Of a stretch of 64,000 nucleotides of DNA, positions 10,394 through 30,282 are shown in pieces (position 1 is the first letter of the stretch; each line of letters opens with the position of its first letter). The notes under the pieces were generated by a model. The model was not told the DNA's origin. It ran no database searches and saw only the letters and a list, made by a program, of their open reading frames with translations. This stretch comes from Oscillospiraceae bacterium. GTDB lineage: Bacteria; Bacillota; Clostridia; Oscillospirales; Acutalibacteraceae. The DNA lies in NCBI GenBank assembly GCA_015065425.1, contig SVQH01000003.1, forward strand, positions 1-64,000. The letters are read 5' to 3'. Both the position numbers and the translations under genes were made by a program.

Positions 10394-12133
10394 TTACGGA
10401 TTTGCACTTTTTACAAGCTCATTAAGGACCGAAATTGTTGTTGAACCTGCTGTGCTGCCTGCTGAAAGCATCTCTTCATAATGTCTGTGGTAGGGACCGA
10501 AGAGTCTTTCTGCACCGTCCATATCCCAGATAGTATCTGTAATAAAGTGTGCATAGTCATTGTCGGGAAGGATATATCCTATTGCATCATTACAAAGCCC
10601 CATTACAAGAACGGTTTTACCTTCCGGTACAAGACTTGCGGTTGCTTCATAAGTCCACTCACTACCGTGATATGAGTCTTCAGCAGAAACAACATTACCG
10701 TAAACAAGCTGAGGAACAAGTTCACCCGGGGCAGTCAGAAGAACAATATCTGTACCTATTTCTATATAACCTGCTTCCGTAATTATTGAATAGCCTGTTT
10801 TACTCGAACAGTCTTTTACTGTTGTAGTTCCAATAAAGCCTTCTGTTGCACCGTATCCGAAAAGACCTGTTTCAAGCCGGACTGCATACTCCGTCATTTT
10901 AACATTGAGTATAGGTTCAATCTCTTTAGCATTGCTCTGAGCCTCAAGTATAAGTCTTGCATACTCATAACCGAGAAGTATGGATGTTTTGTAATCCTCT
11001 GCAGTGGGATTTTCGGCAATTTTTGCATTGACCTCACTTGCAACAGGGTCAGGTATCTCAGCCCATTTATTTACGGAAACGGGAGCCTGTGCACCCTGAA
11101 TGAACATGAAATTCATGCCTGTGTCGTTGATTTTTTCTTCCGTAAAGGCAGGAAAGTCCGCAGAAAGAAGTTTTGTTGATTCGTCAACAACAGTGGGGTG
11201 TGCACCTAGGTTTGCAAAGATAGTTCCGACAGATTCATTGTTATCCGGAACAAACTTGAAGCAGGAGAAACGATGGGGATACCCTTCAGTGTAATATCTC
11301 TTGTTGTAAATGTAAGAATATTCGTCATCGGGATACATGCCTGTGTTGTCATCTTTACCTACGCCGACGGTTTCAAAATAGTAGAGTGAACCTGTTTCCA
11401 TATTCATATATGCCTCAACTATTGCATCGGATGTATTCTCAATCATAATTTCAAGAAATTCGGAATCTGCTGACCTTTTTGCTCCTCTGAAGAAGCTGAA
11501 GAAAATTTTAGCCAACAGATCAAGTCCTATACCCTGTGTATCAATAACCGTATGACAGTGTGTTGCATTTATATTGATTGCATTGATGTCGCTGTTAATG
11601 CCGTTTACTTTGAGTTTTTGTTCAACTGCACCTCTGATGGCACGGATATCACTGTTATTCACGCCGATGCCGTCTATTGATGCAAAAATTGTTGTGCCCC
11701 TGCCCGAACCGTCATTAAGAGCGATTGCTATTGCTTTCTGGTCGTCGAAAACACCGCTTACCTTCTGTGTAAAATATCCGCCGGTATAGTATTTTTTAGT
11801 GCCGTCAAGAAGGTTTGCGGGGACAAGGCTTTTCTTGCCGAAGCCCAGAGACCATTTTGCTCCGTCCGCTGCACTGTCTATGAATTCTTCTGTGCCTTCA
11901 TAGAAGTTTTCGCTGTCAGATGCGAAATATTCCTCAACTGTGAGGTAGTCGGGGGTTGGGGTCAATAAACCTAAAAAGCAGATAGCACCGTCAATAAATC
12001 CGCCCAGTATGTTTGTTACGGTATTAATGGGATTGCTGTGCTGTTTTCCGTCAAATGCTGCTGATGCATTTACTGAGAAGAGCATGGTGAATACAAGAAG
12101 CAATGAGATAATTGGGTATATGAATTTTTTCAT
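10394..12133 (-). CDS. Secreted ceramidase-like hydrolase (paralogue 1)
   Basis: A 579-residue protein with a signal peptide (MKKFIYPIISLLLVFTMLF, cleavage near ASA at about 26). It resembles the neutral/alkaline ceramidase N-terminal domain (PF04734): GGYF...VSGVFDD entry, metal-type NATHCHTVIDTQG, FANLGAHPTVVD with another candidate ligand His, and GLCNDAIGYILPDNDY near the end. Where ceramidases carry the catalytic Ser, this protein has FIQGAQAPVS, so ceramide hydrolysis is uncertain. It is the longest of four paralogues in the window and lies 84 bases behind paralogue 2. AAGGAG precedes the start. Confidence 0.75.
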   Translation of the reverse strand: MKKFIYPIISLLLVFTMLFSVNASAAFDGKQHSNPINTVTNILGGFIDGAICFLGLLTPTPDYLTVEEYFASDSENFYEGTEEFIDSAADGAKWSLGFGKKSLVPANLLDGTKKYYTGGYFTQKVSGVFDDQKAIAIALNDGSGRGTTIFASIDGIGVNNSDIRAIRGAVEQKLKVNGINSDINAININATHCHTVIDTQGIGLDLLAKIFFSFFRGAKRSADSEFLEIMIENTSDAIVEAYMNMETGSLYYFETVGVGKDDNTGMYPDDEYSYIYNKRYYTEGYPHRFSCFKFVPDNNESVGTIFANLGAHPTVVDESTKLLSADFPAFTEEKINDTGMNFMFIQGAQAPVSVNKWAEIPDPVASEVNAKIAENPTAEDYKTSILLGYEYARLILEAQSNAKEIEPILNVKMTEYAVRLETGLFGYGATEGFIGTTTVKDCSSKTGYSIITEAGYIEIGTDIVLLTAPGELVPQLVYGNVVSAEDSYHGSEWTYEATASLVPEGKTVLVMGLCNDAIGYILPDNDYAHFITDTIWDMDGAERLFGPYHRHYEEMLSAGSTAGSTTISVLNELVKSANP

Positions 12134-12217
12134 TTTTGCATCTCCTTATCATGTTTTTATATTTTATAAAGTAGCAAAACCATAAATATAAAGTGCAAAG
12201 AATCGTTACTCTATCAG

Positions 12218-13690
12218 CTATTGTACAGATTTAAGCAGGCTTTCAATTTCGCTGAGAATAATTGCTCCCGTTTCGGGTCCCGTTGAGTTTGTTTCCTCAT
12301 AGTGGTCTCTGTCCATATCGTCAGTAGCTTTGTTGATATACGGCAATGTTTCATTTAACAGGAAATCGTTTTCTGCAAGAATATAGCCAAGTTCATCATT
12401 GCAAAGGCCTATAACAAATTTGTGTCTGCAGTCTGTCATATCGGCAAGTACTTTTTTATAGGTTACCTTTCTGTGGTTAGCACTGTCCTTTTCTGTGAGA
12501 AATTCACCGTTATAAAGCTCGGGGAATAGTTCGCCCGGAATAAGAAACACTGCGACATCCTTATTGCCCAGTTCCATGTAGGCAACCTCAGAAAAAATGC
12601 AGACCTTGTTTCTCTTTTTTGTTCTGCCGATATCGTTATTGAGAACCTTAAGATATCTTGCAAGAATAAGCACCGTGTTGTCACCGGGAACCATAATGCC
12701 CTTTGATTTTATATTGAGAATCGGTTGCAGTTCCGTTTCGTTTGCAATGGAAAGTGCAAGTGTGCCCAGTTGTTTCCCGAAGCCTTTCATATAAGCTTCA
12801 CAATCTATTGAATCTCTGTAAACTTTTTTAATTTCTTTTGCGGAAATCATACCGCCTACGGCACCGTTGAAAAATACAGCGTTTGAGTTAGGTGCTTTTT
12901 CTTCAATTTCTTTTATAAGGTATGCGGGGAAGTCGGCACTGACAAGTGATGTTGTGCCGAGCAGCTCAGCGTGTGAAGCAAAATTTACTATGTAAATGTC
13001 ACCCGAATTGTCATTTGGGGAAAAACGGAATCTTGTAAGGTTTTTGTCATAGGTTTCGGGAGTTCTGACATCTGCCTGCATATCATCAATAGGTGTATAA
13101 CCCATAAAAAAACTGCCGTCTTTTCTGTTTTTATAAGCCGAAACGATAGCCTGAGCCGCTTTTCTTTTGAGATTTTCCATAAAAGCGTTGTCTTTGCCGC
13201 TTTTGTAAATCTTTTCGCCCCATAGTCCCTGGGTGTCAATTCCTGCGTGAGTGTGAGTTGAAGAAATGTTGATTGATTTCATTTTCCCGAGGCTTCCGCT
13301 TTCGAGAGCATATTTTCTGATATCATTTATATCTTTTCTGCTCATGCCTACACAGTCAAGAGCACAGAAAATTACACCGCCGTCGCCCCTGTTGTCGTCA
13401 AGGTAAACCGCTCTTGCGTACAGGTCGTCGAGCACTCCCTTTACAGGGTTATTTGAATCGTAGCCGGCAATATAATATGTTTTATTGTTGTAATCGGCAG
13501 GGGTATAAGACTCCTTTCCGAAGCCGCAGGTCCATTTTTTACCCGGGGCAGAAGAAAACTTTTCGTTACCTCTGAGCATAAATTTATCTGAGTTTTCCTG
13601 CGTCGTAAAATGCTTTTTCGGTATAGTTGAAATAAGTAAATTTGTTAGGGCTGTTACTGCTGATTTTGTGATACTGTCCCGAAAATTCAT
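12218..13690 (-). CDS. Ceramidase-like hydrolase (paralogue 2)
   Basis: A 490-residue PF04734-like protein. The start at 13690 is chosen because AGGAG lies eight bases upstream; a longer frame from 13729 has no ribosome site and runs over the promoter. The N-terminus has a weakly hydrophobic helix rather than a clear signal peptide. Key segments are AGYDSNNPVKGVLDDLYARA, ISSTHTHAGIDTQGLWG, NFASHAELLG, FFNGAVGGM where ceramidases have their Ser, and GLCNDELGYILAENDF. It resembles paralogue 4 (28795) more than its neighbour. First gene of a leftward pair. Confidence 0.72.
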   Translation of the reverse strand: MNFRDSITKSAVTALTNLLISTIPKKHFTTQENSDKFMLRGNEKFSSAPGKKWTCGFGKESYTPADYNNKTYYIAGYDSNNPVKGVLDDLYARAVYLDDNRGDGGVIFCALDCVGMSRKDINDIRKYALESGSLGKMKSINISSTHTHAGIDTQGLWGEKIYKSGKDNAFMENLKRKAAQAIVSAYKNRKDGSFFMGYTPIDDMQADVRTPETYDKNLTRFRFSPNDNSGDIYIVNFASHAELLGTTSLVSADFPAYLIKEIEEKAPNSNAVFFNGAVGGMISAKEIKKVYRDSIDCEAYMKGFGKQLGTLALSIANETELQPILNIKSKGIMVPGDNTVLILARYLKVLNNDIGRTKKRNKVCIFSEVAYMELGNKDVAVFLIPGELFPELYNGEFLTEKDSANHRKVTYKKVLADMTDCRHKFVIGLCNDELGYILAENDFLLNETLPYINKATDDMDRDHYEETNSTGPETGAIILSEIESLLKSVQ

Positions 13691-13720
13691 AATTAGCTCT
13701 CCTAAAAACTGTATATCTTT

Positions 13721-13748
13721 ACTATACACTATTTTTTGAAAAATACAA
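13721..13748 (-). promoter_or_regulatory. Promoter for the leftward ceramidase-like pair
   Basis: Reading leftward: TTGTAT, 16-base spacer, TATAGT, about 30 bases upstream of the start at 13690. A weaker rightward candidate (TTGCTT, 17 bases, TAATCT at 13760-13788) precedes the divergent acetyltransferase. Confidence 0.5.
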
Positions 13749-13823: not shown

Positions 13824-14384
13824 ATGATATTTATCAGAAAATACGAGGAAAAAGATCGTGCTGACGTACACTTTGTCTGCCATAACAGTGAGGGCCCCGA
13901 AGAAGTGCCGAATTATTTAACAGGTCTGTTTTATCATAACACATTCTGCAATTACTATATTGAGCATGAGCCTGAAAATTGCTTTGTTATCGATGATGAC
14001 GGCAGGGCTGTAGGCTATATTCTCTGTGCGGAAAATTTCGACAGATTCAAGGAAATTTTCGACAGAGACTATCTCCCTCGTTCTGACAGCTTCGGTGAGG
14101 ACAGATATGAGTGGGCTTCTACCGCATACAACGCCCAGGAAAAGTTCAAGGACGAATATCCTGCTCATTTTCATGTTGATATTCTTCCCGAATATCAGAG
14201 AATGGGTATGGGAGGCAGACTTGTTGAAACTCTTTGCAATCATCTGGCTGAAAAAGGCGTTTCGGGTGTTTGTCTTACCTGCGGACCGAGAAATGAAAGA
14301 GCAATGAATTTCTATAAAAAATATAATTTCACCCTTTTGTCTCTCGATTATGATGACGCATGTTTCGGTAAAAAAATCAAGTAA
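13824..14384 (+). CDS. GNAT acetyltransferase related to the O-GlcNAcase HAT-like domain
   Basis: A 186-residue GNAT protein. The ATG at 13824 is chosen because GGGTGGTGAT lies just upstream; a longer frame from 13779 has no ribosome site. The acetyl-CoA loop is in HVDILPEYQRMGMGGRLVE, and CLTCGPRNERAMNFYKKYNF closes the domain. The text YPAHFHVDILPEYQRMGMG resembles bacterial homologues of the HAT-like domain of animal O-GlcNAcase. A second copy lies at 25068 next to a GH84 gene. It opens the run leading to the ornithine-cyclodeaminase-like and kdsB genes. Confidence 0.72.
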   Translation: MIFIRKYEEKDRADVHFVCHNSEGPEEVPNYLTGLFYHNTFCNYYIEHEPENCFVIDDDGRAVGYILCAENFDRFKEIFDRDYLPRSDSFGEDRYEWASTAYNAQEKFKDEYPAHFHVDILPEYQRMGMGGRLVETLCNHLAEKGVSGVCLTCGPRNERAMNFYKKYNFTLLSLDYDDACFGKKIK

Positions 14385-15653: not shown

Positions 15654-15677
15654 ATTTAATAAAAAGGAGATTTTAAT

Positions 15678-16421: not shown

Positions 16422-16629
16422 TTGTATTATCTGATAAGCTTATTCCCGCTCTAAATACTATGGTTTTGAGGGGACGTTTTTGCGAATGCTGTAAAAATAT
16501 AAAACAGCAAAATATGTGAAAAATCCCCGTACTGCAATTCAGATAACGTTTTTATTACAATAATTTCGGTGAGAAAGCCCCCCGTTTTGTTACCGATACA
16601 GTAATATCAGATTTAGGAGATGTGAATAA

Positions 16630-17646: not shown

Positions 17647-17671
17647 CATAATTTGTGGAAGGTAATTGTAT

Positions 17672-19108
17672 ATGGAAACTCAAAACATATTTGTATTTCT
17701 GGCTATAAGCATGATTACCATGTGCTTTGGCTGGGGTATGCGAGGCTCCGCAATAGGTGGCGAAAAAGGTGCTATGTTACCCGGTGCATTTATGGGTATT
17801 CTTTGTGTCTGGTATACCGGTTCAGAGCTTCTGATGGAAAATGTATTCTTGTTTGCAGCAGCTTGTGCTCTCGGATATTTTTATGGTGGTATGGAGCCCT
17901 ACGGCTCAACAATGGGACTTGTCCTGGATCACGATAAACCCCGGTATAATCCGTCTCTGGGCTATCTGGCATTGGCTTTCAAAGGCTCAATATGGAGCGG
18001 CTTGGGTGCAGCGTTTCTCGGTATCAGTTTTTCCGCTATGAGCGGTGTTGTTTACAAATGGTACGATTTCGTTATTTTCTTTGCACTTGTTCCCCTTGTG
18101 CAGGAAATCGGTTATCGTATTTTCAACACACCCTATGACCCCGAAAACGGAAGGATGCCCAAAATCGGCTTTTCAAAGGACAGCCGTGAGGAATGGGGTC
18201 GCAATCTGGTAATCGTAGCAGGTCTGTTGGTGCTTATGGCAATCCGTCGTGATATTTTCGGTATTATTATGTGGGTTGGCGGTGCACTTGCAGGTTCAGT
18301 CGGATGGGTTGTTGCTATTACATTCTATGACAAGCAGATGCATCCGCTCAAAAACGGAAAATGGCTTTTTGGAAAGCTTGAAGAACTCAAGGTTATTGAC
18401 GGCTGGAAGATTATGGAATTTACGCAGGGCTGTTTTAACGGTCTCGGAATCAGTGCTGCTTTTGCCCTCGGTTGGCCTCTTGCTGCAAAGAATCTTGAAC
18501 AGGCAGAAGCCGCAGGCAAGCTCTGGTATATGCTTCCGGAAAAGGTTGATATTACTCTTTCCTGGATATTCTGTGCACTGATTATTCTCACTATTTTCCT
18601 TTTCATAATTCCGTACCGCAGAAACGGCAACAAAATCACCCGTGCCTTCGGCGAGGTTGATATGAACATTGTAGAAGTGCTTGAACGCCCCTGTTATATG
18701 GTGGGTCCGCTTGCACTTGTTATGCTCGGTTCAACTACTATGGCAAGTATTATCTGTTGCTTTACAATGTACTATGTTATCGCACAGCATGACGGTCTTG
18801 AACGTTACTGGGATTACAAAGGCATCAAATTAATCCGCATATTCCTGATTCTTGTGGGTGCCGTTATTCTTGTCGGTCAGATTTTAAGAGGCTATACCCT
18901 TTGGGAAACATGGGTTTTCTACTGTGTAGGATATATTCTCTTCGACCTTGCATACTTCTACCGTCCCAAGAGAGTAATCGAAAACTACAGAAAATCGAAA
19001 TCCGTCAAGGAATTCCTCATATCCTTCGGCGGCGATATCACGGTTCTTCCTTTCTTCCATGTTTTAATGGCAGGACTGCTTGTTTTCGGTTATATGAACT
19101 TCCGTTAA
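17672..19108 (+). CDS. Polytopic membrane protein of unknown family (copy 1), transporter candidate
   Basis: A 478-residue protein with about eleven to thirteen hydrophobic helices. The ATG at 17672 follows GGAAGG at good spacing; the TTG six bases upstream is not used. Striking conserved parts are CFGWGMRGSAIGGEKGAM, YGGMEPYGSTMGL, EIGYRIFNTPYDPENG, IIPYRRNGNKITRAFGEVDM and QILRGYTLWETW. No known transporter motif is recognised. It is 25 bases behind the propeller gene and is duplicated immediately downstream. Glycine-rich and charged residues inside helices and the sugar-catabolic setting favour transport, but this is inference. Confidence 0.6.
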   Translation: METQNIFVFLAISMITMCFGWGMRGSAIGGEKGAMLPGAFMGILCVWYTGSELLMENVFLFAAACALGYFYGGMEPYGSTMGLVLDHDKPRYNPSLGYLALAFKGSIWSGLGAAFLGISFSAMSGVVYKWYDFVIFFALVPLVQEIGYRIFNTPYDPENGRMPKIGFSKDSREEWGRNLVIVAGLLVLMAIRRDIFGIIMWVGGALAGSVGWVVAITFYDKQMHPLKNGKWLFGKLEELKVIDGWKIMEFTQGCFNGLGISAAFALGWPLAAKNLEQAEAAGKLWYMLPEKVDITLSWIFCALIILTIFLFIIPYRRNGNKITRAFGEVDMNIVEVLERPCYMVGPLALVMLGSTTMASIICCFTMYYVIAQHDGLERYWDYKGIKLIRIFLILVGAVILVGQILRGYTLWETWVFYCVGYILFDLAYFYRPKRVIENYRKSKSVKEFLISFGGDITVLPFFHVLMAGLLVFGYMNFR

Positions 19109-19191: not shown

Positions 19192-20625
19192 ATGACTGAA
19201 AGTCCTGCACTTTTTATTGTTTTCAGTATGCTGGCTATGTGCTTTGGCTGGGGTATTCGCGGCTCGGCAATCGGTGGCGAAAAGGGTGCTATGTTTCCCG
19301 GTGCCTTCATGGGTATTATGTGTGTATGGTACACGGGTTCAGAACTTCTTATGGAAAATGTGTTTCTGTTCGCTGCTGCCTGTGCTCTCGGTTATTTTTA
19401 CGGCGGTATGGAGCCTTATGCATCAACAATGTTTCTTGTGCTTCACCACGATAAACCCCGATATAATCCGTCGCTCGGATATCTTGCCCTTAGCTTTAAG
19501 GGTGCAATCTGGGGCGGTCTCGGTGCGGCTTTTTTAGGTATCAGCTTTTCTGCAATGAGCGGTGTCGTTTATAAGTGGTATGATTTTGTTATTTTCTTTG
19601 CACTTGTACCCTTGTCGCAGGAAATAGGCTATCGTATTTTTAACACACCCTATGACCCTGAAAACGGCAAAATGCCTAAAATCGGTTTTTCTGAGGACAG
19701 CCGTGAAGAATGGGGACGCAATGTTGTAATTGTTGCTGAATTATTGCTGATGATGGCAATACGCGGAGATATTTTTTCAATTATTATGTGGATTGGCGGT
19801 GCTTTGTTCGGTGCAATCGGTTGGGTTATCGGTATAACTCTTTATGATAAAGAGTGCCATCCTCTCAGAAACGGTAAGCGTATGTTCGGCAAACTGGATG
19901 AACTTAAGGTTATTGACGGTTGGAAAATGATGGAGCTTGTTCAAGGTCTTGCTCAGGGTTTCGGCATTTCCGTTGCATTTATAATTGCCTGGCCTCTTGC
20001 AAAAGAAAAACTTGCTGTCGCAGAAACGATAGGTTCATTGTGGCATCCCTTTCCGCAGAATGTTGATACCATTCTCTCCTGGGTATTCTGTGTGTTAATT
20101 ATTCTGACAATTTTCCTGTTTATCATTCCTTACCGCAGAAACGGTAATAAAATTACCAAGGCCTTCGGCGAGGTTGATATGAACATTGTAGAAGTGCTTG
20201 AACGCCCCTGCTATATGGTGGGACCGCTTGCACTTATTATGCTCGGCTCAACTACTATGGCAGGAATTATCTGCTGCTTTACCATGTATTATGTTATAGC
20301 TCAGCACGACGGATTGGAGCGTTACTGGGATTATAAAGGCATCAGATTTATCCGTATATTCTTGATTTCTCTTGGTGCAGTTATTCTGGTCGGTCAGATT
20401 TTAAGAGGCTATACTCTTTGGGAAACCTGGATCTTCTACTGCTGCGGATATCTTGTATTTGAAGCATTCTTTATGTTCCGTCCCGGACTTGTTATTGAAA
20501 ACCGCAAAAAGACGAAAAATATCGGTCAGTTTATTGCTTCTTTCGGCTGTTCTGTAACCGTATATCCTACATATCTGCTTATGATGACAGCACTGCTGAT
20601 TTTCGGCGGAATTTATTTGAGATAA
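19192..20625 (+). CDS. Polytopic membrane protein of unknown family (copy 2), transporter candidate
   Basis: A 477-residue paralogue of the preceding gene, near identical over many blocks (FGWGIRGSAIGGEKGAM, VLERPCYMVGPLAL, AQHDGLERYWDYKGI) and diverged around residues 250-290 and at the end. Retention of both copies with conserved loops suggests either two substrates or a two-subunit channel. AAAGGAG precedes the ATG. A terminator separates it from copy 1, so it may be expressed separately, together with the phosphatase, kinase and etherase genes that follow. Confidence 0.6.
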   Translation: MTESPALFIVFSMLAMCFGWGIRGSAIGGEKGAMFPGAFMGIMCVWYTGSELLMENVFLFAAACALGYFYGGMEPYASTMFLVLHHDKPRYNPSLGYLALSFKGAIWGGLGAAFLGISFSAMSGVVYKWYDFVIFFALVPLSQEIGYRIFNTPYDPENGKMPKIGFSEDSREEWGRNVVIVAELLLMMAIRGDIFSIIMWIGGALFGAIGWVIGITLYDKECHPLRNGKRMFGKLDELKVIDGWKMMELVQGLAQGFGISVAFIIAWPLAKEKLAVAETIGSLWHPFPQNVDTILSWVFCVLIILTIFLFIIPYRRNGNKITKAFGEVDMNIVEVLERPCYMVGPLALIMLGSTTMAGIICCFTMYYVIAQHDGLERYWDYKGIRFIRIFLISLGAVILVGQILRGYTLWETWIFYCCGYLVFEAFFMFRPGLVIENRKKTKNIGQFIASFGCSVTVYPTYLLMMTALLIFGGIYLR

Positions 20626-21309: not shown

Positions 21310-22221
21310 ATGACCGGAAATAATATAAAATATCTTTTAGGCATTGACGGCGGCGGAACAAAGACGGAGTTTTTGTTGACGGATATGAATAAAAAGAAAA
21401 TCAGACAGATATATCTTGGTACATCAAATCCCGTAAACTGCGGAATCGAAAACTCAGAATCAATACTGAGACTTGGTATTTCAGAAATATGCGAAGCCTT
21501 GAATTACAGTGAGATATCTGTCTTTGCAGGATTTGCAGGAGGCGGTTCAAAGGACATAAAAGCTGAAATTCACCGATTTCTCGGAGAGTTCGGTTTCGGT
21601 TCTTATGCAAACGGCAGCGATACCGACAGTACATTGGAACTCGCATTAAAAGGTGAAAGCGGAGTTGCTGTCATTATGGGAACGGGCATTGTTGCCTTCT
21701 GCCAATCGGACGGAGAGCGTCACCGTATAGGCGGTTGGGGGTATATGATAGACAAAGGCGGGAGCGGTTTCCATTTAGGGTCGGATGCTCTTGACAGTGC
21801 TTTTGGTTATCTTGACGGCAGGGGCGGAAGCAAGTTGATTTCAGAGCTTGTTGAAAATAAACTCGGAAAAAGCCTTGAAGATTCGCTTTCGGAGATTTAT
21901 TCGGGCGGTCCAGCTTTTATTGCTTCTTTTGCCCCGATAATTTTTGACGCGTTTGAGCAAGGTGATGGGGAAGCGGAGAAGATTTTAGACCGCAATGCCC
22001 GAGAGGCGGCAAAAATAATTACTACCGCACAAAGTTTTCTTAAAAATAATGAAAAAACCGTTATCTGCGGGGGACTAAGTAGGCAGAAAAATATATTAAA
22101 GCCTTTTTTACTTAAATATACCGAAGATGATTATCCCCTTATTTTTTCGGATGAGCCGACAGTGAGCGGTGCAGTATCTCTTGCAAAATCAAATATTTCA
22201 GGTGGTGAAATAAATGCTTAA
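21310..22221 (+). CDS. N-acetylglucosamine kinase-like ATPase (BadF/BadG family)
   Basis: A 303-residue protein of the BcrAD/BadFG ATPase family (PF01869). The phosphate loop LLGIDGGGTKTEF is at 9-21, and GVAVIMGTGIVAF and RIGGWGYMIDKGGSGFHLG are the adenosine-side loops typical of eukaryotic-type GlcNAc kinases. It probably phosphorylates an amino sugar such as GlcNAc or MurNAc at C6. The stop overlaps the MurQ start by eight bases, so both are translated together, which fits a route from MurNAc to MurNAc-6-phosphate to GlcNAc-6-phosphate. Confidence 0.78.
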   Translation: MTGNNIKYLLGIDGGGTKTEFLLTDMNKKKIRQIYLGTSNPVNCGIENSESILRLGISEICEALNYSEISVFAGFAGGGSKDIKAEIHRFLGEFGFGSYANGSDTDSTLELALKGESGVAVIMGTGIVAFCQSDGERHRIGGWGYMIDKGGSGFHLGSDALDSAFGYLDGRGGSKLISELVENKLGKSLEDSLSEIYSGGPAFIASFAPIIFDAFEQGDGEAEKILDRNAREAAKIITTAQSFLKNNEKTVICGGLSRQKNILKPFLLKYTEDDYPLIFSDEPTVSGAVSLAKSNISGGEINA

Positions 22222-23020
22222 GACTGAAATGAGAAATCGTAATACTTATGATATTGACAAGATGTCCACATATCAAATACTGAAGATAATAAATGATGAA
22301 AACGCCAAGGTAACAGCTGCCGTGGATAAAGCACTTCCCGAAATTGAAAAAGCTTGTGATGCCACAGCAGATGTAATAAAATCAGGCGGTAAAGTGTATT
22401 ATATCGGAAGCGGAACTTCGGGCAGACTTGGTGTGTGCGATGCCGCAGAGTGTCCGCCTACCTTTGGTGTGCCTTATGATTTATTCAACGGAATTATTGC
22501 AGGCGGAGAAAAATGTATGTTCAAAGCCGCCGAAAATGCAGAAGATAATGCTGAAATGGCGGTTAATGATTTGAAAAATCGCAATTTCAGCAGCAAGGAT
22601 ATATTAATAGGAATTTCCGCATCAGGCTCGGCAGCTTATGTTATTTCAGCAGTGAATTATGCAAAAAGCATAGGTGCAAAAACAGTTTCCGTCACCAACA
22701 ATCCCGATACAGAACTTGGAAAAGCTGCAGATGTTGATATCTGTGCCGATACTGGACCCGAGGTTATTGCCGGCTCAACGAGAATGAAGGCGGGAACTGC
22801 TCAGAAAATTATTCTTAATATGATATCAACCGCATCCATGGTTAAATGTGGCTGTGTTTATGAAAATCTGATGATAAATCTCAGACCGACCAATAAAAAA
22901 CTCAGAAAAAGAATGATAGGAATAGTTACTGAAATTCTTGGCTGTTCCGAAGAGAAAGCAGAAAAACTTCTTGAAGCAAACGGCTGGAATATCCGTCCAG
23001 CAGTTGAAGGAGACAAATAA
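22214..23020 (+). CDS. murQ: N-acetylmuramic acid 6-phosphate etherase, short form
   Basis: A 268-residue SIS-domain protein. YYIGSGTSGRLGVCDAAECP at 62-81 contains the catalytic Glu (E79), ENAEDN near 107-112 has the second acid, and GSTRMKAGTAQK is intact. Known MurQ proteins run near 300 residues; this one stops about 30 residues early, shortly after NLRPTNKKLRKR and a short helical tail. MurQ removes D-lactate from MurNAc-6-phosphate in the cytosol. It overlaps the kinase by eight bases and its TAA shares one base with the next ATG. Confidence 0.9.
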   Translation: MLKTEMRNRNTYDIDKMSTYQILKIINDENAKVTAAVDKALPEIEKACDATADVIKSGGKVYYIGSGTSGRLGVCDAAECPPTFGVPYDLFNGIIAGGEKCMFKAAENAEDNAEMAVNDLKNRNFSSKDILIGISASGSAAYVISAVNYAKSIGAKTVSVTNNPDTELGKAADVDICADTGPEVIAGSTRMKAGTAQKIILNMISTASMVKCGCVYENLMINLRPTNKKLRKRMIGIVTEILGCSEEKAEKLLEANGWNIRPAVEGDK

Positions 23021-24759
23021 TGGGACTTTACAGAATCGCCGCAAACGGCGAAAGCAATTTTCATATAGTGAATCATCAGTATTCAGACGAAACGGTGCGT
23101 TACGCTGCATCCGAGCTGCAGAAATATCTGCTTAAAGCAACCAATGCGGCTATTCCGTATTATTCAGACAGATGCCCCATGCGTGGCCCCGAAATCCGTA
23201 TTGGCGAAAATGTAAGAGGTGAAACAGCTGTTGAAACTGACCTTGATACAGAGGGTTTTTATATCAGAGGACAAGGTGAACATATAACAATTACCGGAAA
23301 AACCTCAAGAGGTGTTCTCTACGGTGTATACCGTTTTCTTGAAATCTTTTGTAATTTTCGCTCTTTTACGAAGGATGCAGAGCAGATTGACACAATAGAT
23401 GTACTTGAAATAGAGCTTGATGAGATAAAAGATGAACCTGCTTTTGAGTTCCGAGATGCATATTTCCGTAATGCTTTTGACGGAGGCTTTGCATCAAAAA
23501 ACAGATTGAATTCGGGACTTTGCGATATTTCAAAAGCAAAGGGCGGCAGAGTTAAATGGTATAATTTTCACCATTCTTTCTGTGACCTTGTGCCTGAAAG
23601 CCTTTATTTTGACGGACATCCCGAATATTATTCAGAGGTTGACGGAAAAAGGGTCCCGAACAGTCAGCTTTGCCTGACAAATCCCGAGGTTCTGAAAATT
23701 GCTGAGAATACACTTCGGAGATGGATTAAGGAAAATCCCGAATGCACAGTTTTTTCTGTTGCACAAAACGATAATATGCTAAGATGTACCTGTCCGGGCT
23801 GTTCTCAGCTTGAAAAAGAGGAGGGAAGTCCTGCAGGACCCATTATTCATTTTGTAAATAAGCTTTCCGATGCGATAAATGCGGATTATCCCGATATTCT
23901 GCTTCACACTTTTGCTTATCAGTATTCACTGCCCGCACCGAAAAAGGCGGTTGCAAGGGATAATGTGATAGTAAGGCTTTGTTCCATTGATTGCAGATAT
24001 GATAAGTCCTTCGAAACTCTTGCAAAGCAGAATCCCGACGGCAGTGAAGCAGTTTTTGTTAACGCACTGAACGATTGGAAAAGTCATGCCACCCGACTTT
24101 ATGTATGGGATTATGCCGTTAATTTTGAAAACTATCTTCAGCCGTTTATTCATCTTCATACACTCAAAGAAAATATCAGATTTTTTAAGCATATCGGTAT
24201 AAAGGGTCTTCTTGAACAAGGAAATTTCGCCTATGGCGGCGGTGCCGCCTTTGATGACCTTAAAGCTTTTGTTATAAGCCGTCTTCTCTGGAATCCGGAG
24301 GCTGATATTGATAAAGAAATGTCCCTGTTTCTTGACGGAGTTTACGGTAATGCGGCAGGTAAATTTATAAAAGAATATGTTGCACTTGCTGAAAAAACAT
24401 GTTCATCCGCACCGCTTTCAATTTATCAGAATCCTGATGCGAAGTACATAACCGATGAATTCATTGAAAAAGCGGATTTGCTGTTTAACAAAGCTATGCA
24501 AGTGGCAGAATCGGATGAAACAAGAAAGCGTTTGGACAGAGAGTATCTTTCTGTTCGTTTTCTGAAACTTGCACGCATGGAATTGAATGTACCGGGTCGT
24601 ACAGAACTGATTGAAAAATTCATTTATGATGTCAAAAAACACGGTATGACGGAAATTATGGAGCGTGCATCGCTTGCTGTTTCAAAGCAATGTATGATTA
24701 ACAGCCGATATGCCACTGACCACACAGGCGAATACAGAGTGTACTACATAATGCAATAA
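23020..24759 (+). CDS. DUF4838 protein, possible glycosidase
   Basis: A 579-residue cytosolic protein. The N-terminal part (about 20-130, YAASELQKYL then GVLYGVYRFLE) resembles the accessory domain preceding GH20/GH67 barrels. The middle has FSVAQNDNMLRCTCPGC and LHTFAYQYSL, as in DUF4838 (PF16126). No catalytic mechanism is established for the family. The gene starts inside the MurQ stop codon, so the products are made together and the substrate is likely an amino sugar or a muropeptide glycan. A hairpin terminator follows. Confidence 0.72.
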   Translation: MGLYRIAANGESNFHIVNHQYSDETVRYAASELQKYLLKATNAAIPYYSDRCPMRGPEIRIGENVRGETAVETDLDTEGFYIRGQGEHITITGKTSRGVLYGVYRFLEIFCNFRSFTKDAEQIDTIDVLEIELDEIKDEPAFEFRDAYFRNAFDGGFASKNRLNSGLCDISKAKGGRVKWYNFHHSFCDLVPESLYFDGHPEYYSEVDGKRVPNSQLCLTNPEVLKIAENTLRRWIKENPECTVFSVAQNDNMLRCTCPGCSQLEKEEGSPAGPIIHFVNKLSDAINADYPDILLHTFAYQYSLPAPKKAVARDNVIVRLCSIDCRYDKSFETLAKQNPDGSEAVFVNALNDWKSHATRLYVWDYAVNFENYLQPFIHLHTLKENIRFFKHIGIKGLLEQGNFAYGGGAAFDDLKAFVISRLLWNPEADIDKEMSLFLDGVYGNAAGKFIKEYVALAEKTCSSAPLSIYQNPDAKYITDEFIEKADLLFNKAMQVAESDETRKRLDREYLSVRFLKLARMELNVPGRTELIEKFIYDVKKHGMTEIMERASLAVSKQCMINSRYATDHTGEYRVYYIMQ

Positions 24760-25067: not shown

Positions 25068-25625
25068 TCATTGAAGTTTCAGCCCGTAAACGGCACAGTT
25101 TTTCATTTCTTCAAGCAGAGTAAAACCATATTTGTCGTAGAAGCCTCTGCCTTTCTTGTTTTTTATCCATGTTGTAAGCATAATTCCCTTGATGCCTTTA
25201 CTTTTCAGATGTTTTATGAGTGCATCGGTCATTTGATGCCCCAGCCCCATTCTCTGATATTCGGGAAGTACATCAATATGAAGGTGTGCCGGGTAGTTTT
25301 TCTTGTATTTTTCGTGAGGAATAATTGACCTTAGTGCTGATTTTCTGCGGCGGAATTCCCATTTTTTGATTTTCGGGTAATATTCGCTTATAAAACGCTC
25401 TTTAAAAACAACAAAATCTTCCGTGCAGATAATATATCCTATTGCTTTATCGTTTTCATCGACTGCAACAAAGCAATTTTCGGGTTCCTTTTCGATATAA
25501 TAATCACAGTAAACCGCAAGGCCGAAGTTTATCCCTCTTTCTGAACTCTTGCAGGGACCATCGCTGTTCAGACAGACGAAACGCACATTTTCCTTGTCCT
25601 TTGCTTCATAAGGTCTTACTGTCAT
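25068..25625 (-). CDS. GNAT acetyltransferase resembling the O-GlcNAcase HAT-like domain
   Basis: A 185-residue GNAT protein, paralogue of the one at 13824. The core YPAHLHIDVLPEYQRMGLG is the acetyl-CoA binding loop, and FYDKYGFTLLEE ends the fold. This wording matches bacterial relatives of the C-terminal HAT-like domain of animal O-GlcNAcase better than ordinary ribosomal-protein acetyltransferases. It is divergent from and 112 bases away from a GH84 gene, the other half of that enzyme. Promoter at 25650-25678. Whether it acetylates sugars or proteins is unknown. Confidence 0.75.
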   Translation of the reverse strand: MTVRPYEAKDKENVRFVCLNSDGPCKSSERGINFGLAVYCDYYIEKEPENCFVAVDENDKAIGYIICTEDFVVFKERFISEYYPKIKKWEFRRRKSALRSIIPHEKYKKNYPAHLHIDVLPEYQRMGLGHQMTDALIKHLKSKGIKGIMLTTWIKNKKGRGFYDKYGFTLLEEMKNCAVYGLKLQ

Positions 25626-25649
25626 ATTACCACGCCCTTTCTTTTGTAA

Positions 25650-25678
25650 ATTTTAGCATCTGAGGCGGATAAAATCAA
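25650..25678 (-). promoter_or_regulatory. Promoter for the acetyltransferase gene
   Basis: Leftward TTGATT, 17-base spacer, TAAAAT. Its -35 is ten bases from that of the divergent GH84 promoter, so one regulator could control both. Confidence 0.5.
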
Positions 25679-25688
25679 GTATTCAATA

Positions 25689-25717
25689 TTGTATTATCAA
25701 TAAGAATGGTGTATTAT
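25689..25717 (+). promoter_or_regulatory. Promoter for the GH84 operon
   Basis: Rightward TTGTAT, 17-base spacer, TATTAT, about 20 bases before the ribosome site. Confidence 0.5.
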
Positions 25718-25737
25718 TGTAAACAGGAGGGATGTTT

Positions 25738-27303
25738 ATGTCTGATATTCCCGCTTTTCATGAGCTTTTCGGTGATGTTTTGAATGATTTTGATATAAGT
25801 ATTTCTTATCTCGATTCGAGGCGTACCCTATATTGCGAAAAATCTCATAGAGTAACTGATGAAAAATTCATACTCAGTATTTGCGGCAGAAAGATTGATA
25901 TTGAATGTTCCGGAGAAAAAAGTGCTTTTTATGCACTGTGCGATGTCGCAAAACGGCTTTCTGAAAACCGTATGTGTGACGGTGAATATGTCTGTTCTCC
26001 CTCATTTTCCGTTAGAGGATATATTGAGGGATTTTACGGTACTCCGTGGAGCCACGAAAACCGAAAATCCGTTATGGCACTTATGGCAAAAAACCGTATG
26101 AATACAGTATATTATGCCCCCAAGGATGATTTGTATCACCGTGAAAAATGGCGTGAAAAATATCCCGAAAAAGAGCTTACAAAACTCAAAGAGCTGGTTG
26201 TTACTTCAAAGAAATATTATATGGATTTTTATTGGTGTATTGCCCCGGGTCTTTCTATGAAATACTCCGACAATGATGAATTCAATGCACTGATTGAAAA
26301 AACAAAGCAACTTTATTCAATCGGAATCACTTCTTTCGGACTGCTTCTTGACGATATTGACGAAGAGCTTGAATTTGAAGAGGATAAGGTCTGTTACGGT
26401 GAAACGGTCAATGCCCATATTGACCTTATTAACAGGTATTATGCCGAATTGAAGGAGCTTGACAGCTCGGTGAAACTCAACGTTTGCCCTACTCTTTATC
26501 ACGGAAAAGGTAACGAATATTATATTTCAAAGCTCGGTCAGAATATACCTCCCCGTGTTTCGGTTTTCTGGACGGGAAGAGATATATGTTCAAGGGAGCT
26601 TACAAGCTTTGAAGCTCTTAAATTCATTGAATGTACTCATCACAAACCACTATATTGGGACAATTATCCCGTAAACGATTGTTCTATGTATAATGAGATG
26701 CATATTTCACCGATTATTAACCGTGATGCAGATTTATGGAAATATTCAGAAGGCATAATTTCAAACTGTATGGAATATGCAGAGTGCTCAAAAATTCCCC
26801 TCATAACCTTTGCAGATTTTTTGTGGGACAGCGAAAATTATGATTCGCAGTTTTCGTGGGAGAATGCTATAAAGCAGGTAATTGGTGAAAAATATGCTGA
26901 TGCATTCACTGTTTTCGCAGACCATCTTTATACCTCCTGCCTCAAAGATGCAAATTCAAGGCGGATGTATGAAGCACTTGATAAAATTGAATCTGCATTC
27001 AAAGCGGGGGATATGCAAAAAGCAATTTCACTCAGCGAAGAATATCTCGGCAAAATGAGTGCCTGCAAAGAATTTCTTATGAAAGATTTGCCGATTTGCC
27101 GTGAACTTTCCAAATGGTCGGAAAAATTTTATGTTTTCTGTGATTTGACAGAAAAGATTTTTGAATATATAAAAAGCAAAGATGATTCTCTTAAAGAGAA
27201 GATATTCTCTCTGATTGATAAATACAATACAATGCCTGCCCGTCTTTCAAACGACACCGATATAAAGAGTGAACTTAAAAATTTGTTTGCGGCGGTAAAC
27301 TAA
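25738..27303 (+). CDS. GH84 O-GlcNAcase-like beta-N-acetylglucosaminidase
   Basis: A 521-residue cytosolic protein. AGGAGGG ends six bases before the ATG at 25738; the ATG six bases earlier touches the ribosome site and is rejected. An N-terminal domain (about 1-90) is followed by the GH84 barrel: RGYIEGFYGTPWSHENR at 93-109, and the catalytic Asp pair in LLLDDIDEE (D205 and D206). GH84 enzymes use substrate-assisted hydrolysis of beta-GlcNAc. Lack of a signal peptide implies an internal substrate. The operon continues with two ceramidase-like genes; an O-GlcNAcase-type acetyltransferase is divergent. Confidence 0.88.
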   Translation: MSDIPAFHELFGDVLNDFDISISYLDSRRTLYCEKSHRVTDEKFILSICGRKIDIECSGEKSAFYALCDVAKRLSENRMCDGEYVCSPSFSVRGYIEGFYGTPWSHENRKSVMALMAKNRMNTVYYAPKDDLYHREKWREKYPEKELTKLKELVVTSKKYYMDFYWCIAPGLSMKYSDNDEFNALIEKTKQLYSIGITSFGLLLDDIDEELEFEEDKVCYGETVNAHIDLINRYYAELKELDSSVKLNVCPTLYHGKGNEYYISKLGQNIPPRVSVFWTGRDICSRELTSFEALKFIECTHHKPLYWDNYPVNDCSMYNEMHISPIINRDADLWKYSEGIISNCMEYAECSKIPLITFADFLWDSENYDSQFSWENAIKQVIGEKYADAFTVFADHLYTSCLKDANSRRMYEALDKIESAFKAGDMQKAISLSEEYLGKMSACKEFLMKDLPICRELSKWSEKFYVFCDLTEKIFEYIKSKDDSLKEKIFSLIDKYNTMPARLSNDTDIKSELKNLFAAVN

Positions 27304-27321: not shown

Positions 27322-28788
27322 ATGGCAGTTATAATCAGATGGTTAACGGCAATTTTAGCGGTACTTACAGGTCTTCCCCTACTTCTTTCCTCAGTTTTTC
27401 AAAGTGCGACAAAAATCGGTTACGAAGAAAGACCAACGGAAGCAATCAGTGCAAATTTTCTTGAGGGGGACGAAAACTTCATTGACGAAGCTGCGGCAGA
27501 GTACTGGTCAGCAGGTTATGCCCGCAGAGTGCTTACTCCCGATGATATTGACAGCACAAGATATTTCCTCGGCGGCTATCTTAAATTTCCCGCACAGGAA
27601 GTAACGGGTGTTATTGACGATTTATGTGTAAGAGCAGTTGTTCTTGACGATAATTCAGGCAGAGGTGCGGCTGCATTCGCATGGATTGACGGTGTTGGAT
27701 TTATGAACGCTGATATCAAGGAAATCCGCGAAAAACTCAATGATATTACAGGTGTCGGCAAACTGATAAGCATTGATGTCGGCTCCACTCATACCCACAG
27801 CGGCATTGATACGCAGGGACTTTGGGGCAACATTCCTTTCAGCGGCAGAAATCAGGATTATATTGATAAGGTTGTTTCAAAAACTGCCGATGCAATAAGA
27901 GAGGCTTATAACAACCGTTGTGACGGTACACTATATTATTCTTCAAAAGTTTGTCCCGAAATGTTCTATGACGGAAGAGCCCCCTATGCCATTGATGAAA
28001 AAATTCACCTTTTCCGTTTTGTGCCCAATGACACAAATAAAAAAGAAATTTACATTGCAAATTTCGGTGCTCATCCCGTTAATCTTGACTGGAGTAACAC
28101 TGAACTGTCAGGTGACTTCCCGTTTTATGTTGAACAAACTGTTACAGCAGAAAAGAATGTTGATTTCATCTTTATTCAGGGTGCAATAGGCGGTGCAATC
28201 CACATCAACACGGATGCAAAAACCGGAATTCCCGAGGAACTGACAGCCTATGAAAAAATGAAGGAGTACAGCAAACTTATTGCAGATATTCTTTATGAAC
28301 TTGCAGCAAGCGGCGAGGCAGTTGCCCCCATACTTAATGTAGCTCATGCTCAGGTTGATTTTGAGGTCAATAACTTTATTTTCCTTCTTGCAGAGCGTGC
28401 AGGTCTTTGTAATGCCACCGCTTTTAAAGAGGACGGAAAGATTTATCTTACAAGTGAAATCGGCTTTATTGAAATCGGTGAAAATATAAAAATCCTTGAA
28501 GCCCCCGGCGAAGTGTTGCCCGAACTTGTTTACGGCGGATTTTTCTCAGCTGATGAGGCGTACAGCGGTACAGAATATCCCTATTCGGCACTTAACAATT
28601 ATTTCGCAGAGAGCGACGAAGTGCTTGTTTTCGGGCTTTGTAACGATGCTGTAGGATACATCGTGCCCGATAATGATTATTCCGCTTCAAATGAAGAAGG
28701 TCACTATGAAGAAACCGTTTCAACAGGCTCATTTACCGCATCTGCATTTTCAAAGGCATTTGAGAAACTTATAAAGGCTTGGAGGTAA
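27322..28788 (+). CDS. Ceramidase-like hydrolase (paralogue 3)
   Basis: A 488-residue PF04734-like protein with an N-terminal hydrophobic helix (about 4-26) that may be a signal or anchor. Metal motif GSTHTHSGIDTQGLWG, ANFGAHPVNLDW, then FIQGAIGGAIH at the place of the ceramidase Ser, and GLCNDAVGYIVPDNDY near the end. It lies 18 bases after the GH84 gene and six bases before paralogue 4. Nearest in its GGYL...SGRG region to paralogue 1. A role on an acylated sugar or lipid released with the GH84 product is possible. Confidence 0.74.
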   Translation: MAVIIRWLTAILAVLTGLPLLLSSVFQSATKIGYEERPTEAISANFLEGDENFIDEAAAEYWSAGYARRVLTPDDIDSTRYFLGGYLKFPAQEVTGVIDDLCVRAVVLDDNSGRGAAAFAWIDGVGFMNADIKEIREKLNDITGVGKLISIDVGSTHTHSGIDTQGLWGNIPFSGRNQDYIDKVVSKTADAIREAYNNRCDGTLYYSSKVCPEMFYDGRAPYAIDEKIHLFRFVPNDTNKKEIYIANFGAHPVNLDWSNTELSGDFPFYVEQTVTAEKNVDFIFIQGAIGGAIHINTDAKTGIPEELTAYEKMKEYSKLIADILYELAASGEAVAPILNVAHAQVDFEVNNFIFLLAERAGLCNATAFKEDGKIYLTSEIGFIEIGENIKILEAPGEVLPELVYGGFFSADEAYSGTEYPYSALNNYFAESDEVLVFGLCNDAVGYIVPDNDYSASNEEGHYEETVSTGSFTASAFSKAFEKLIKAWR

Positions 28789-28794
28789 GATTAA

Positions 28795-30282
28795 ATGGAA
28801 GTATTACGTTTTTTAGGTCTTCCCGCTATGGTAAGGGGGATTATTTCAGCTCTTTTATCATTGATAATAATCATTATGCCAAACTCTATGTTTACGACAG
28901 AGACGGATGAGGCTCAGTATATGCTCACGGGTGACGGTATATTTTCAGATGTCGCAGGAGATTTCTGGACGATTGGTTTTGCAAAAGAAGTGCTCTCTCC
29001 CGAGGACATAACTTCCGACACATATTATATCGCAGGTTATAACACGAACAATCCGGCAAAGGATATTCTTGATGATATGTATGCAAAAGCTGTTTATCTT
29101 GACGATAATACCGGCAGGGGCGGTGTCATTGTATGTGCCATTGATTGCGTAGGTATCAGCCGTTCAGATATAAATGACATAAGACGAAAGGTTATTGAAA
29201 GCGGCGAGATTCCGAATCTCAAATCAATCAATATCTGTGCTACACATGCCCACTCTGCTATAGATACGCAGGGACTTTGGGGTAAAGCTTTTTACTTCGA
29301 CGGCAAAAATGATGATTTTATGAATTCTCTTAAGGAGAAGACCGCCGCTGCAATTATCGCTGCATATAAATCACGGGAAAACGGAAGACTATATTTCGGA
29401 ACTGCAGAAGCTGATGGTATGCAGGCAGACACAAGAACTCCTGTTGATTTTGATGCAACTGTTACAAGTATTCGTTTCGAGCCTGCAGATGGTGGCAGGG
29501 ATACTTATATCGTAAATTACGCTTGTCATGCTGAGATGCTCGGAAGTAAGACCAATGTTGTCAGTGCAGATTTCCCTGCATATATGACAAAAGAAATTGA
29601 TGAGAAAACAGGTGGGGCAAACGTTGTTTTTATAAACGGAGCAATAGGCGGACTTGTTACAGGTGCTGAGATTGATAACTTCCTCAAAGGTGAGCTTTCA
29701 GAATGTATTGAGCACACCAAAGAATACGGCAAACAAATTGGCGGTTTGGTTTTAGGTATAAACAATGAAAAGGAACTCTCTCCCATAATAAATATAAAAT
29801 CCCGAACTGTGAGCGTTGTTTGCGAAAATACCGCACTTCTTCTTGCAAGATTTATCGGAGTTCTTAACAATGACGTTGCATTGAACGGTTTGACTAAGGT
29901 ATCCATTATTACGGAAGTTTCTTATGCGGAACTTGGCTCCCGTCAGATAGGCATTTATATGATACCCGGTGAGCTTTATCCCGAACTTGAAAGCGGCAAT
30001 TTCCTTTCTGCTGAAGAATCGGCAAACGGAGTAGCGGCAGATTATAAATCACTTTCTGAAATGTCACGCTGCGAACATAACTTTGTTCTCGGTCTTTGCA
30101 ATGATGAATTGGGTTATATTATCCCCGAAAACGATTTTATGCTTCACGAATGGCTTCCTTATTTCAATATACCGTATGATTCATTTGACAGAAAACACTA
30201 TGAAGAAACAAACTCTGTCGGTCCCAAAACAGCAGGCACATTACTCGAAGCTATGGATGAACTGATAACTTCAATCAGATAA
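28795..30282 (+). CDS. Ceramidase-like hydrolase (paralogue 4)
   Basis: A 495-residue PF04734-like protein with an N-terminal hydrophobic segment (MVRGIISALLSLIIIIM). Motifs: AGYNTNNPAKDILDDMYAKA, ICATHAHSAIDTQGLWG, NYACHAEMLG, FINGAIGGLVTG and GLCNDELGYIIPENDF. It resembles paralogue 2 in the SNNPVK/TNNPAK and CHAEMLG blocks. Six bases separate it from paralogue 3. A terminator follows. Confidence 0.74.
   Translation: MEVLRFLGLPAMVRGIISALLSLIIIIMPNSMFTTETDEAQYMLTGDGIFSDVAGDFWTIGFAKEVLSPEDITSDTYYIAGYNTNNPAKDILDDMYAKAVYLDDNTGRGGVIVCAIDCVGISRSDINDIRRKVIESGEIPNLKSINICATHAHSAIDTQGLWGKAFYFDGKNDDFMNSLKEKTAAAIIAAYKSRENGRLYFGTAEADGMQADTRTPVDFDATVTSIRFEPADGGRDTYIVNYACHAEMLGSKTNVVSADFPAYMTKEIDEKTGGANVVFINGAIGGLVTGAEIDNFLKGELSECIEHTKEYGKQIGGLVLGINNEKELSPIINIKSRTVSVVCENTALLLARFIGVLNNDVALNGLTKVSIITEVSYAELGSRQIGIYMIPGELYPELESGNFLSAEESANGVAADYKSLSEMSRCEHNFVLGLCNDELGYIIPENDFMLHEWLPYFNIPYDSFDRKHYEETNSVGPKTAGTLLEAMDELITSIR

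What the first reader, a model, noticed from the sequence alone, without database searches (positions are those of the whole stretch)
25068..27303. Two halves of animal O-GlcNAcase as divergent neighbour genes
A GH84 hydrolase and a GNAT protein with the PAHLHIDVLPEYQRMGLG core lie back to back, with -35 boxes ten bases apart. In animals GH84 and a HAT-like GNAT domain are fused in one O-GlcNAcase. Adjacent separate genes hint that the fused enzyme reflects an old functional partnership on the same substrate. A second copy of the acetyltransferase (13824) begins the same island. The relation to the HAT-like domain is by recalled family wording and would need alignment.
Basis: partly seen in the sequence, partly recalled or inferred. 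Interest (0 to 1): 0.75.

Follow-up and report, generated by a model that had tools for sequence, protein, structure and literature searches.

The report
Acetyltransferase beside GH84 in sugar-salvage operon
A gut clostridium carries, as neighbouring genes, bacterial relatives of the two halves of the animal enzyme O-GlcNAcase, inside what looks like an amino-sugar salvage gene cluster, which suggests that the unexplained acetyltransferase-like half of the animal enzyme may descend from an enzyme that acetylates amino sugars.

Summary
25732-27303(+) is a GH84 beta-N-acetylglucosaminidase. 25068-25625(-) and its 44%-identical copy at 13824-14384(+) are GNATs whose best PDB matches are SsAT and OgpAT, bacterial models of the O-GlcNAcase pseudo-acetyltransferase domain. 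An AlphaFold model (pLDDT 96) ranks SsAT, OgpAT and the Trichoplax O-GlcNAcase domain first in the PDB. GH84 next to such a GNAT was already published for Oceanicola granulosus (PMC3814719).

New here: in related clostridia the GNAT sits in a recurrent, rearranged module with GH84, MurK-like kinase, MurQ or another SIS protein, and ceramidase-fold proteins; 56 of 82 surveyed GNATs have a salvage gene within 3 kb. A Falsirhodobacter relative lies beside nagB, a NagA-like gene and a BadF kinase. All 108 bacterial GNATs checked keep the CoA loop and His-x-His that the human domain lacks. I read it as an active amino-sugar N-acetyltransferase that re-acetylates glucosaminyl groups so that GH84 can cut them. 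Homology and context are shown; the substrate is inferred.

Against generality: 0 of 41 other GH84-bearing Bacillota genomes have the GNAT.

The parts
25068..25625 (-). GNAT1, O-GlcNAcase-pHAT-like (SsAT/OgpAT family) N-acetyltransferase with intact CoA loop QRMGLG and HxH
25626..25731 (.). 106-bp divergent intergenic region; promoter-like matches at chance level
25732..27303 (+). GH84 exo-beta-N-acetylglucosaminidase; DD pair at residues 207-208; no N-terminal membrane segment seen by eye; probable start 25738
13824..14384 (+). GNAT2, 44% identical second copy, divergent from a ceramidase-like gene
21310..22221 (+). BadF-type amino-sugar kinase; best PDB match is an N-acetylmuramic acid/N-acetylglucosamine kinase (8zo3, 5e-25)
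22214..23020 (+). MurQ, N-acetylmuramic acid 6-phosphate etherase (TIGR00274, above cut-off)
23020..24759 (+). DUF4838 protein with GH67N-type N-terminal domain; putative glycosidase, recurrent neighbour
27322..28788 (+). neutral-ceramidase-fold protein (putative amidase) with N-terminal hydrophobic helix
28795..30282 (+). second ceramidase-like protein of the downstream pair
12218..13729 (-). ceramidase-like protein divergent from GNAT2
10394..12133 (-). fourth ceramidase-like protein

Best explanation
GNAT1 is a working acetyl-CoA-dependent N-acetyltransferase of the same family as the dead acetyltransferase-like domain of animal O-GlcNAcase. It serves a cytoplasmic amino-sugar salvage module (probably for cell-wall or other GlcN-containing glycan fragments). 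It acetylates the free amino group of glucosamine or of glucosaminyl ends of imported fragments. GH84 needs the 2-acetamido group to cut, so acetylation turns uncleavable glucosaminides into substrates. The released sugars go to the MurK/NagK-like kinase and MurQ. Shown: family membership, intact CoA loop and His pair, recurrent module, no recognisable O-GlcNAc transferase in the genome. Inferred: the acceptor, the order of acetylation and cleavage, and the cytoplasmic location.
For: Family. Active-site loop: HxH and [QRH]xx[GH]x[GA] in 108 of 108 bacterial rows (loosened after a stricter pattern gave 98 and 81 of 108); the human fragment matched neither strict pattern. Context: of 79 survey loci, 49 hold a BadF kinase of this family, 47 GH84, 45 ceramidase-like, 28 an SIS protein and 23 MurQ (families), and their density falls off within 4-6 kb of the GNAT. 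GNAT with nagB, a NagA-like gene (best model N-acetylglucosamine-6-phosphate deacetylase, below its cut-off) and BadF kinase in Falsirhodobacter; with nagA, nagB and two GH20 genes in G147; beside a PIG-L de-N-acetylase gene in D. radiodurans and in 4 of 4 members of a clostridial subset. L043: DUF4838, GNAT, GH84 on one strand with gaps of 13 and 18 bp. Precedent: in the fungal GH3-GNAT fusion RmNag the GNAT half is a glucosamine N-acetyltransferase and is required to cleave (GlcN)2 (PMC4680927, section read). SsAT's pocket suits a small polar molecule (PMC3919268, passages). The own genome has 4 polysaccharide deacetylase-family matches, a possible source of GlcN.
Against: I saw no activity data for any member of this family. 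26 of 82 survey GNATs have no salvage gene within 3 kb, and three own paralogues lie in unrelated contexts (L008, L009, L010). Of 14 plasmid GNAT loci opened, 6 show no sugar-catabolic context that I could detect, and 5 more only ROK, MocA-type or sugar-transport genes. The GNAT is absent from the other GH84-bearing Bacillota genomes drawn. The own genome has no NamZ match, so peptidoglycan is not proven as the source. MurK and MurQ are useful without any GNAT.
Confidence: 0.5

Rival explanations
1. The GNAT acts after, not before, GH84: it acetylates free amino sugars (GlcN, a GlcN phosphate or muramic acid) so that the kinase, MurQ and NagA can handle them, and GH84 is merely in the same regulon.
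For: BadF kinase is as frequent a neighbour as GH84 (49 of 82 GNATs have it within 3 kb); in the Falsirhodobacter and G147 loci the GNAT sits with nagB and nagA-type genes and tblastn found no GH84.
Against: GH84 lies within 500 bp of 33 of 74 GNAT ORFs, closer than a regulon alone requires; RmNag shows acetylation before cleavage.
Confidence: 0.25
2. The real partner of the GNAT is the ceramidase-fold protein (and PIG-L in other loci): an N-acyl exchange in which a non-acetyl N-acyl group is removed and acetyl is put in its place before the sugar is used.
Against: 57 of 78 ceramidase-like members start with a hydrophobic segment, so they probably act outside the cell while the GNAT needs cytoplasmic acetyl-CoA; their substrate is unknown.
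Confidence: 0.1
3. A bacterial protein O-GlcNAc system: GH84 removes O-GlcNAc from proteins and the GNAT modifies the same proteins.
For: The closest solved GH84 is 5diy, TtOGA of Thermobaculum terrenum (name recalled), for which a cytoplasmic O-GlcNAc system was proposed (PMC4683255, passages).
Against: No GT41 O-GlcNAc transferase was found in the window's genome (the same search rings in 2 of 14 control genomes; own genome 95% complete). The neighbours are sugar-catabolic. TtOGA itself lacks the acetyltransferase-like domain.
Confidence: 0.05
4. No functional coupling: a mobile or expanded small-amine acetyltransferase family that happens to be neighbour to GH84 in one lineage.
For: Family expanded to five copies in the own genome; paralogues in unrelated contexts; pairing restricted to few lineages.
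Against: The association survives several gene-order changes; amino-sugar genes also adjoin proteobacterial and deinococcal relatives.
Confidence: 0.1

Closest known systems
OgOGA-OgpAT gene pair of Oceanicola granulosus (PMC3814719, section 3.1 read)
   Same: [quoted passage not shown] OgpAT binds acetyl-CoA.
   Different: Published as one locus of unknown function. Here the genes are divergent or reordered, clostridial, and lie with MurK-, MurQ-, SIS- and ceramidase-like genes; GNAT1 is 27% identical to OgpAT in the structural alignment.
SsAT of Streptomyces sviceus (PDB 4bmh, PMC3919268, passages)
   Same: Top match of GNAT1 by sequence and structure; same type of CoA loop and HxH.
   Different: Substrate unknown; stand-alone protein; no GH84 neighbour is mentioned in the passages that I read.
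Animal O-GlcNAcase (GH84 plus pseudo-HAT)
   Same: Both halves homologous.
   Different: Fused, no CoA binding, works with an O-GlcNAc transferase. Here separate genes, intact CoA loop, no GT41 found.
RmNag-type fungal GH3-GNAT proteins (PMC4680927, section read; Ngs1 PMC5063960 seen in listing only)
   Same: A beta-N-acetylglucosaminidase physically joined to a glucosamine N-acetyltransferase that is needed to cleave (GlcN)2.
   Different: GH3, not GH84; tandem GNAT domains.
GlmA/MurK cell-wall rescue of Clostridium acetobutylicum (Reith and Mayer 2011; paper not held, cited, details recalled)
   Same: Glucosaminide N-acetyltransferase, MurNAc/GlcNAc kinase and intracellular beta-N-acetylglucosaminidase in one salvage route.
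   Different: There the hydrolase is GH3 NagZ (recalled). Sequence relation of GNAT1 to GlmA was not tested because the sequence was not at hand.

Membership tests
SsAT/OgpAT/O-GlcNAcase-pHAT GNAT family | full-length sequence similarity including the N-terminal half, not only the CoA motif | tested here: met
   A3 profile: 4bmh 9e-62, 3zj0 1e-48, human OGA 7e-21 to 9e-21, TaOGA 8e-19, aligned from position 2 to 185-196; next best (Naa30) best stretch 131-185. The clostridia-only profile A2 still ranks 4bmh and 3zj0 first, with OGA full length at 2e-6 but behind short motif matches.
SsAT/OgpAT/O-GlcNAcase-pHAT GNAT family | fold | tested here: met
   [not shown]
SsAT/OgpAT/O-GlcNAcase-pHAT GNAT family | CoA P-loop and catalytic-type HxH (bacterial members) | tested here: met
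   108 of 108 rows with a loosened pattern; strict patterns 98 and 81 of 108; GNAT1 has QRMGLG and HLH.
GH84 | Pfam NAGidase domain above cut-off | tested here: met
   338 bits against a cut-off of 25.
GH84 | catalytic double Asp | tested here: met
   LLLDDIDEE, residues 207-208, aligned to DD of the 2j4g chain and to DN of the 5diy chain; DD named as catalytic in PMC4683255.
animal-type O-GlcNAcase | GH84 and pHAT in one chain | tested here: not met
   separate ORFs; longest GH84 ORF 599 aa and longest GNAT ORF 249 aa among the clustered ORFs; the one long open frame over a GNAT, in G576, is an overlap with an opposite-strand gene, not a fusion, by eye.
animal-type O-GlcNAcase | acetyl-CoA site lost | tested here: not met
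   P-loop intact.
animal-type O-GlcNAcase | cognate O-GlcNAc transferase (GT41) in the genome | tested here: not met
   0 matches in G000, 95% complete.
glucosamine/glucosaminide N-acetyltransferase (GlmA-type) | N-acetylation of GlcN or GlcN-terminated glycans | not testable with these tools
   needs an enzyme assay
glucosamine/glucosaminide N-acetyltransferase (GlmA-type) | sequence kinship to C. acetobutylicum GlmA | not tested
   sequence not at hand; paper not held.
peptidoglycan salvage via NamZ, MurK and MurQ | NamZ, MurK-like kinase and MurQ together | tested here: not met
   MurK-like kinase and MurQ in the window; no NamZ match in the own genome, although 16 of 79 survey loci hold NamZ.

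The most novel reading that the evidence does not exclude
The pseudo-HAT half of animal O-GlcNAcase descends from bacterial amino-sugar N-acetyltransferases. GH84 and this GNAT family were repeatedly brought together (clostridia, Oceanicola, the animal lineage) because one re-acetylates glucosaminides and the other cuts them. The animal enzyme is a fused acetylate-then-cleave machine whose acetylating half died and was kept for regulation.
Probability: 0.3. Interest if true: 0.85.

Novelty: new variant of a known kind. Interest (0 to 1): 0.55.

Why it matters
The role of the HAT-like domain of O-GlcNAcase is called controversial and its function unknown (PMC12494797, passages). If its bacterial relatives acetylate amino sugars, the odd domain pairing gains a simple chemical reason, and the question becomes testable with one small enzyme. 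It would also give gut clostridia a GH84-based route for de-N-acetylated glycan fragments.

Tried and rejected
Promoter evidence for the divergent pair: at chance level; not used. Generality of the pair: rejected for Bacillota at large. The 398-genome draw has GH84 in 42 and the GNAT in 3 genomes, overlapping only in the own genome (E <= 1e-20, at most 8 candidates scored per genome as far as listed, so weaker relatives could be missed). With GNAT1 alone at E <= 1e-10, the order draw has 2 of 197 and the class draw 6 of 391, own genome included in both. GH84 on plasmids: 0 of 4 opened loci (of 88 matching records) have a detectable GNAT. NagZ as alternative hydrolase: 7 GH3 matches in the genome; a NagZ-type motif scan of the two best found nothing, inconclusive. 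Tree: the animal domain has a very long branch (3.49), so its placement is weak, and the tool warned of long branches meeting. Fusion: a 577-aa open frame over a G576 GNAT looked like one; its N-terminal part overlaps an opposite-strand gene, so not a fusion. In one search, 74 GNAT ORFs were counted because clustering missed the GNAT in 7 of 79 loci; one search uses all 82 GNATs of the 79 loci. The neighbour counts include the window; one search gives the survey loci alone. RmNag's structure does not appear among the 50 rows shown; this says nothing about kinship. Literature: searches gave no paper linking the O-GlcNAcase pHAT to amino-sugar acetylation beyond the analogy drawn in PMC4680927; these were listings, in CC-licensed PMC text only.

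[quoted passage not shown] they were used for the tree and the pattern check only.

Full report
Observation. The window holds a GH84 gene at 25732-27303(+) and a GNAT gene at 25068-25625(-), divergent over 106 bp. GH84 identity is plain: Pfam NAGidase 338 bits, PDB 5diy 2e-76, BT_4395 1e-61, human O-GlcNAcase from 6e-41. The double Asp (residues 207-208) is present. The GNAT has a 44%-identical copy at 13824-14384(+); the genome has five paralogues in all and a second GH84 on contig C40. The promoter claim is not supported beyond chance.

Active or dead. All 108 bacterial rows keep HxH and a [QRH]xx[GH]x[GA] loop (stricter patterns gave 98 and 81 of 108, the misses being mainly H for Q/R at the first loop position and M for L between the histidines). 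The human fragment matched neither strict pattern, in line with the published loss of acetyl-CoA binding (PMC3814719 and PMC12494797, passages). OgpAT and SsAT bind acetyl-CoA. So GNAT1 should be an enzyme, not a pseudo-enzyme.

Neighbourhood. A genome-contig scan gave 280 confirmed relatives, of which the best 79 loci were fetched, all metagenome-assembled clostridia or Bacillota by title. Clustering all flanking ORFs without choosing families beforehand, the commonest neighbour families in the 79 loci are BadF kinase (49), GH84 (47), ceramidase-like (45), an SIS protein (28), MurQ (23), then an MFS-type family (17) and NamZ (16). Their density falls steeply with distance from the GNAT: GH84 0.24, 0.08, 0.02, 0.00, 0.01 per 2-kb side bin; kinase 0.27, 0.05, 0.01, 0.01, 0.01. 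56 of 82 GNATs have at least one of kinase, GH84, MurQ, NamZ or SIS within 3 kb; 26 do not. Gene orders read: cer-cer-GH84 divergent from GNAT, usually then MurQ-kinase; GH84 divergent from GNAT-kinase-SIS; GNAT divergent from cer-kinase-SIS-GH84; GNAT-(kinase, SIS)-GH84 on one strand; and in L043 kinase-MurQ-DUF4838-GNAT-GH84-cer-cer all on one strand, which is the window's own order with the GNAT flipped, gaps 13 and 18 bp around the GNAT. The tree needs 11 changes of the paired label, so pairing has been gained or lost repeatedly, but it is clustered.

Other bacteria. 14 plasmid loci with GNAT relatives were opened (of 27 and 33 matching records). Falsirhodobacter algicola: ABC, BadF, ROK, DMT, GNAT, nagB, then an amidohydrolase whose best NCBIfam models are N-acetylglucosamine-6-phosphate deacetylase, below cut-off; its GNAT matches 4bmh 2e-36, 3zj0 2e-34 and 6r45 5e-11 over nearly full length. 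Duffyella: sugar ABC, ROK, BadF, MocA-type. D. radiodurans: a PIG-L gene next door and nagA further on. Five more (L101, L103, L105, L106, L111) have ROK, MocA-type or sugar-transport genes only. Six (L099, L100, L104, L107, L108, L109) have nothing telling that I could detect; L108 has no usable annotation. In unnamed clostridia, G147 has nagA, two GH20 genes, nagB and the GNAT; G389, G494, G545 and G468 have the GNAT beside a PIG-L gene; L008, L009, L010, L125, L126 and L127 have no match to the salvage query set.

Limits of the pairing. In the window's genus 25 of 26 genomes have the GNAT and 19 have GH84; 6 of 21 GH84 matches have it within 3 kb. In a Bacillota draw of 398 genomes, GH84 is in 42 and the GNAT in 3, only the own genome having both. 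So GH84 mostly lives without this GNAT, and the pairing is a lineage trait. Animal O-GlcNAcase, OgpAT and SsAT fall with proteobacterial and actinobacterial rows (12 rows, support 97), apart from the main clostridial family (92 rows, 100), with a long-branch warning. The clostridial pair is therefore more likely a parallel than an ancestor.

Mechanism. The human GH84 works by anchimeric assistance of the 2-acetamido group (start of the abstract of PMC10636738 in the listing), so GlcN-ended glycans should not be cut until re-acetylated; that this holds for the window's GH84 is inference from family. The fungal GH3-GNAT protein RmNag shows the principle: it cleaves (GlcN)2 only with acetyl-CoA (PMC4680927 section 7). 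The same paper says that some bacterial glucosamine N-acetyltransferases restore GlcN ends of peptidoglycan fragments before glucosaminidase cleavage. I propose the same chemistry here with GH84 and another GNAT subfamily. The own genome lacks a recognisable GT41 O-GlcNAc transferase and NamZ and has four polysaccharide deacetylase-family matches, one inside the window at 56744-57061. The substrate pool (own wall, chitin or chitosan, host or microbial glycans) is open.

Known and new. Known: both families, their kinship to animal O-GlcNAcase, and one bacterial GH84-GNAT pair (PMC3814719 section 3.1). Not found: the clostridial pair in several gene orders, its MurK/MurQ/SIS/ceramidase-like module, the nagB/NagA-like/BadF operon in Falsirhodobacter, and the reading of the family as amino-sugar N-acetyltransferases.

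Noticed in passing
window 10394-13729 and 27322-30282; survey loci: Four neutral-ceramidase-like proteins; the family, mostly with an N-terminal hydrophobic helix, is the densest neighbour of this GNAT family in the clostridial survey; substrate unknown, possibly an amino-sugar N-deacylase or muramyl amidase.
   Followed up: partly
L013, L014, L015, L016; L110: Divergent members of the GNAT family sit beside a PIG-L-type de-N-acetylase gene (a folylpolyglutamate-synthase-like gene, by eye, on the other side in L013 and L014), and D. radiodurans has a convergent GNAT/PIG-L pair: a possible acetylation/deacetylation couple.
   Followed up: partly
window 14442-17646: GNAT2 is followed by a 403-aa protein with only weak family matches, a KdsB-like CMP-sugar synthase and a sialidase-like protein (the last two by eye); these three are 90-94% identical in L087, L088 and L094.
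   Followed up: no
window 17666-19108 and 19192-20625: Two tandem membrane proteins of one family; the first had no Pfam or NCBIfam match, the second was not searched.
   Followed up: no
survey family 4, e.g. L041:6349-7086: An SIS-domain protein (PRK02947 type) is present in 28 of 79 survey loci, mostly where MurQ is missing; its reaction is not known to me.
   Followed up: no
G000 C10, C21, C42 (L008, L009, L010): Three further GNAT paralogues in unrelated contexts, for example near rimM/trmD-like genes in L009 and 2-oxoacid-oxidoreductase-like genes in L010 (by eye): lineage expansion with possible new substrates.
   Followed up: partly
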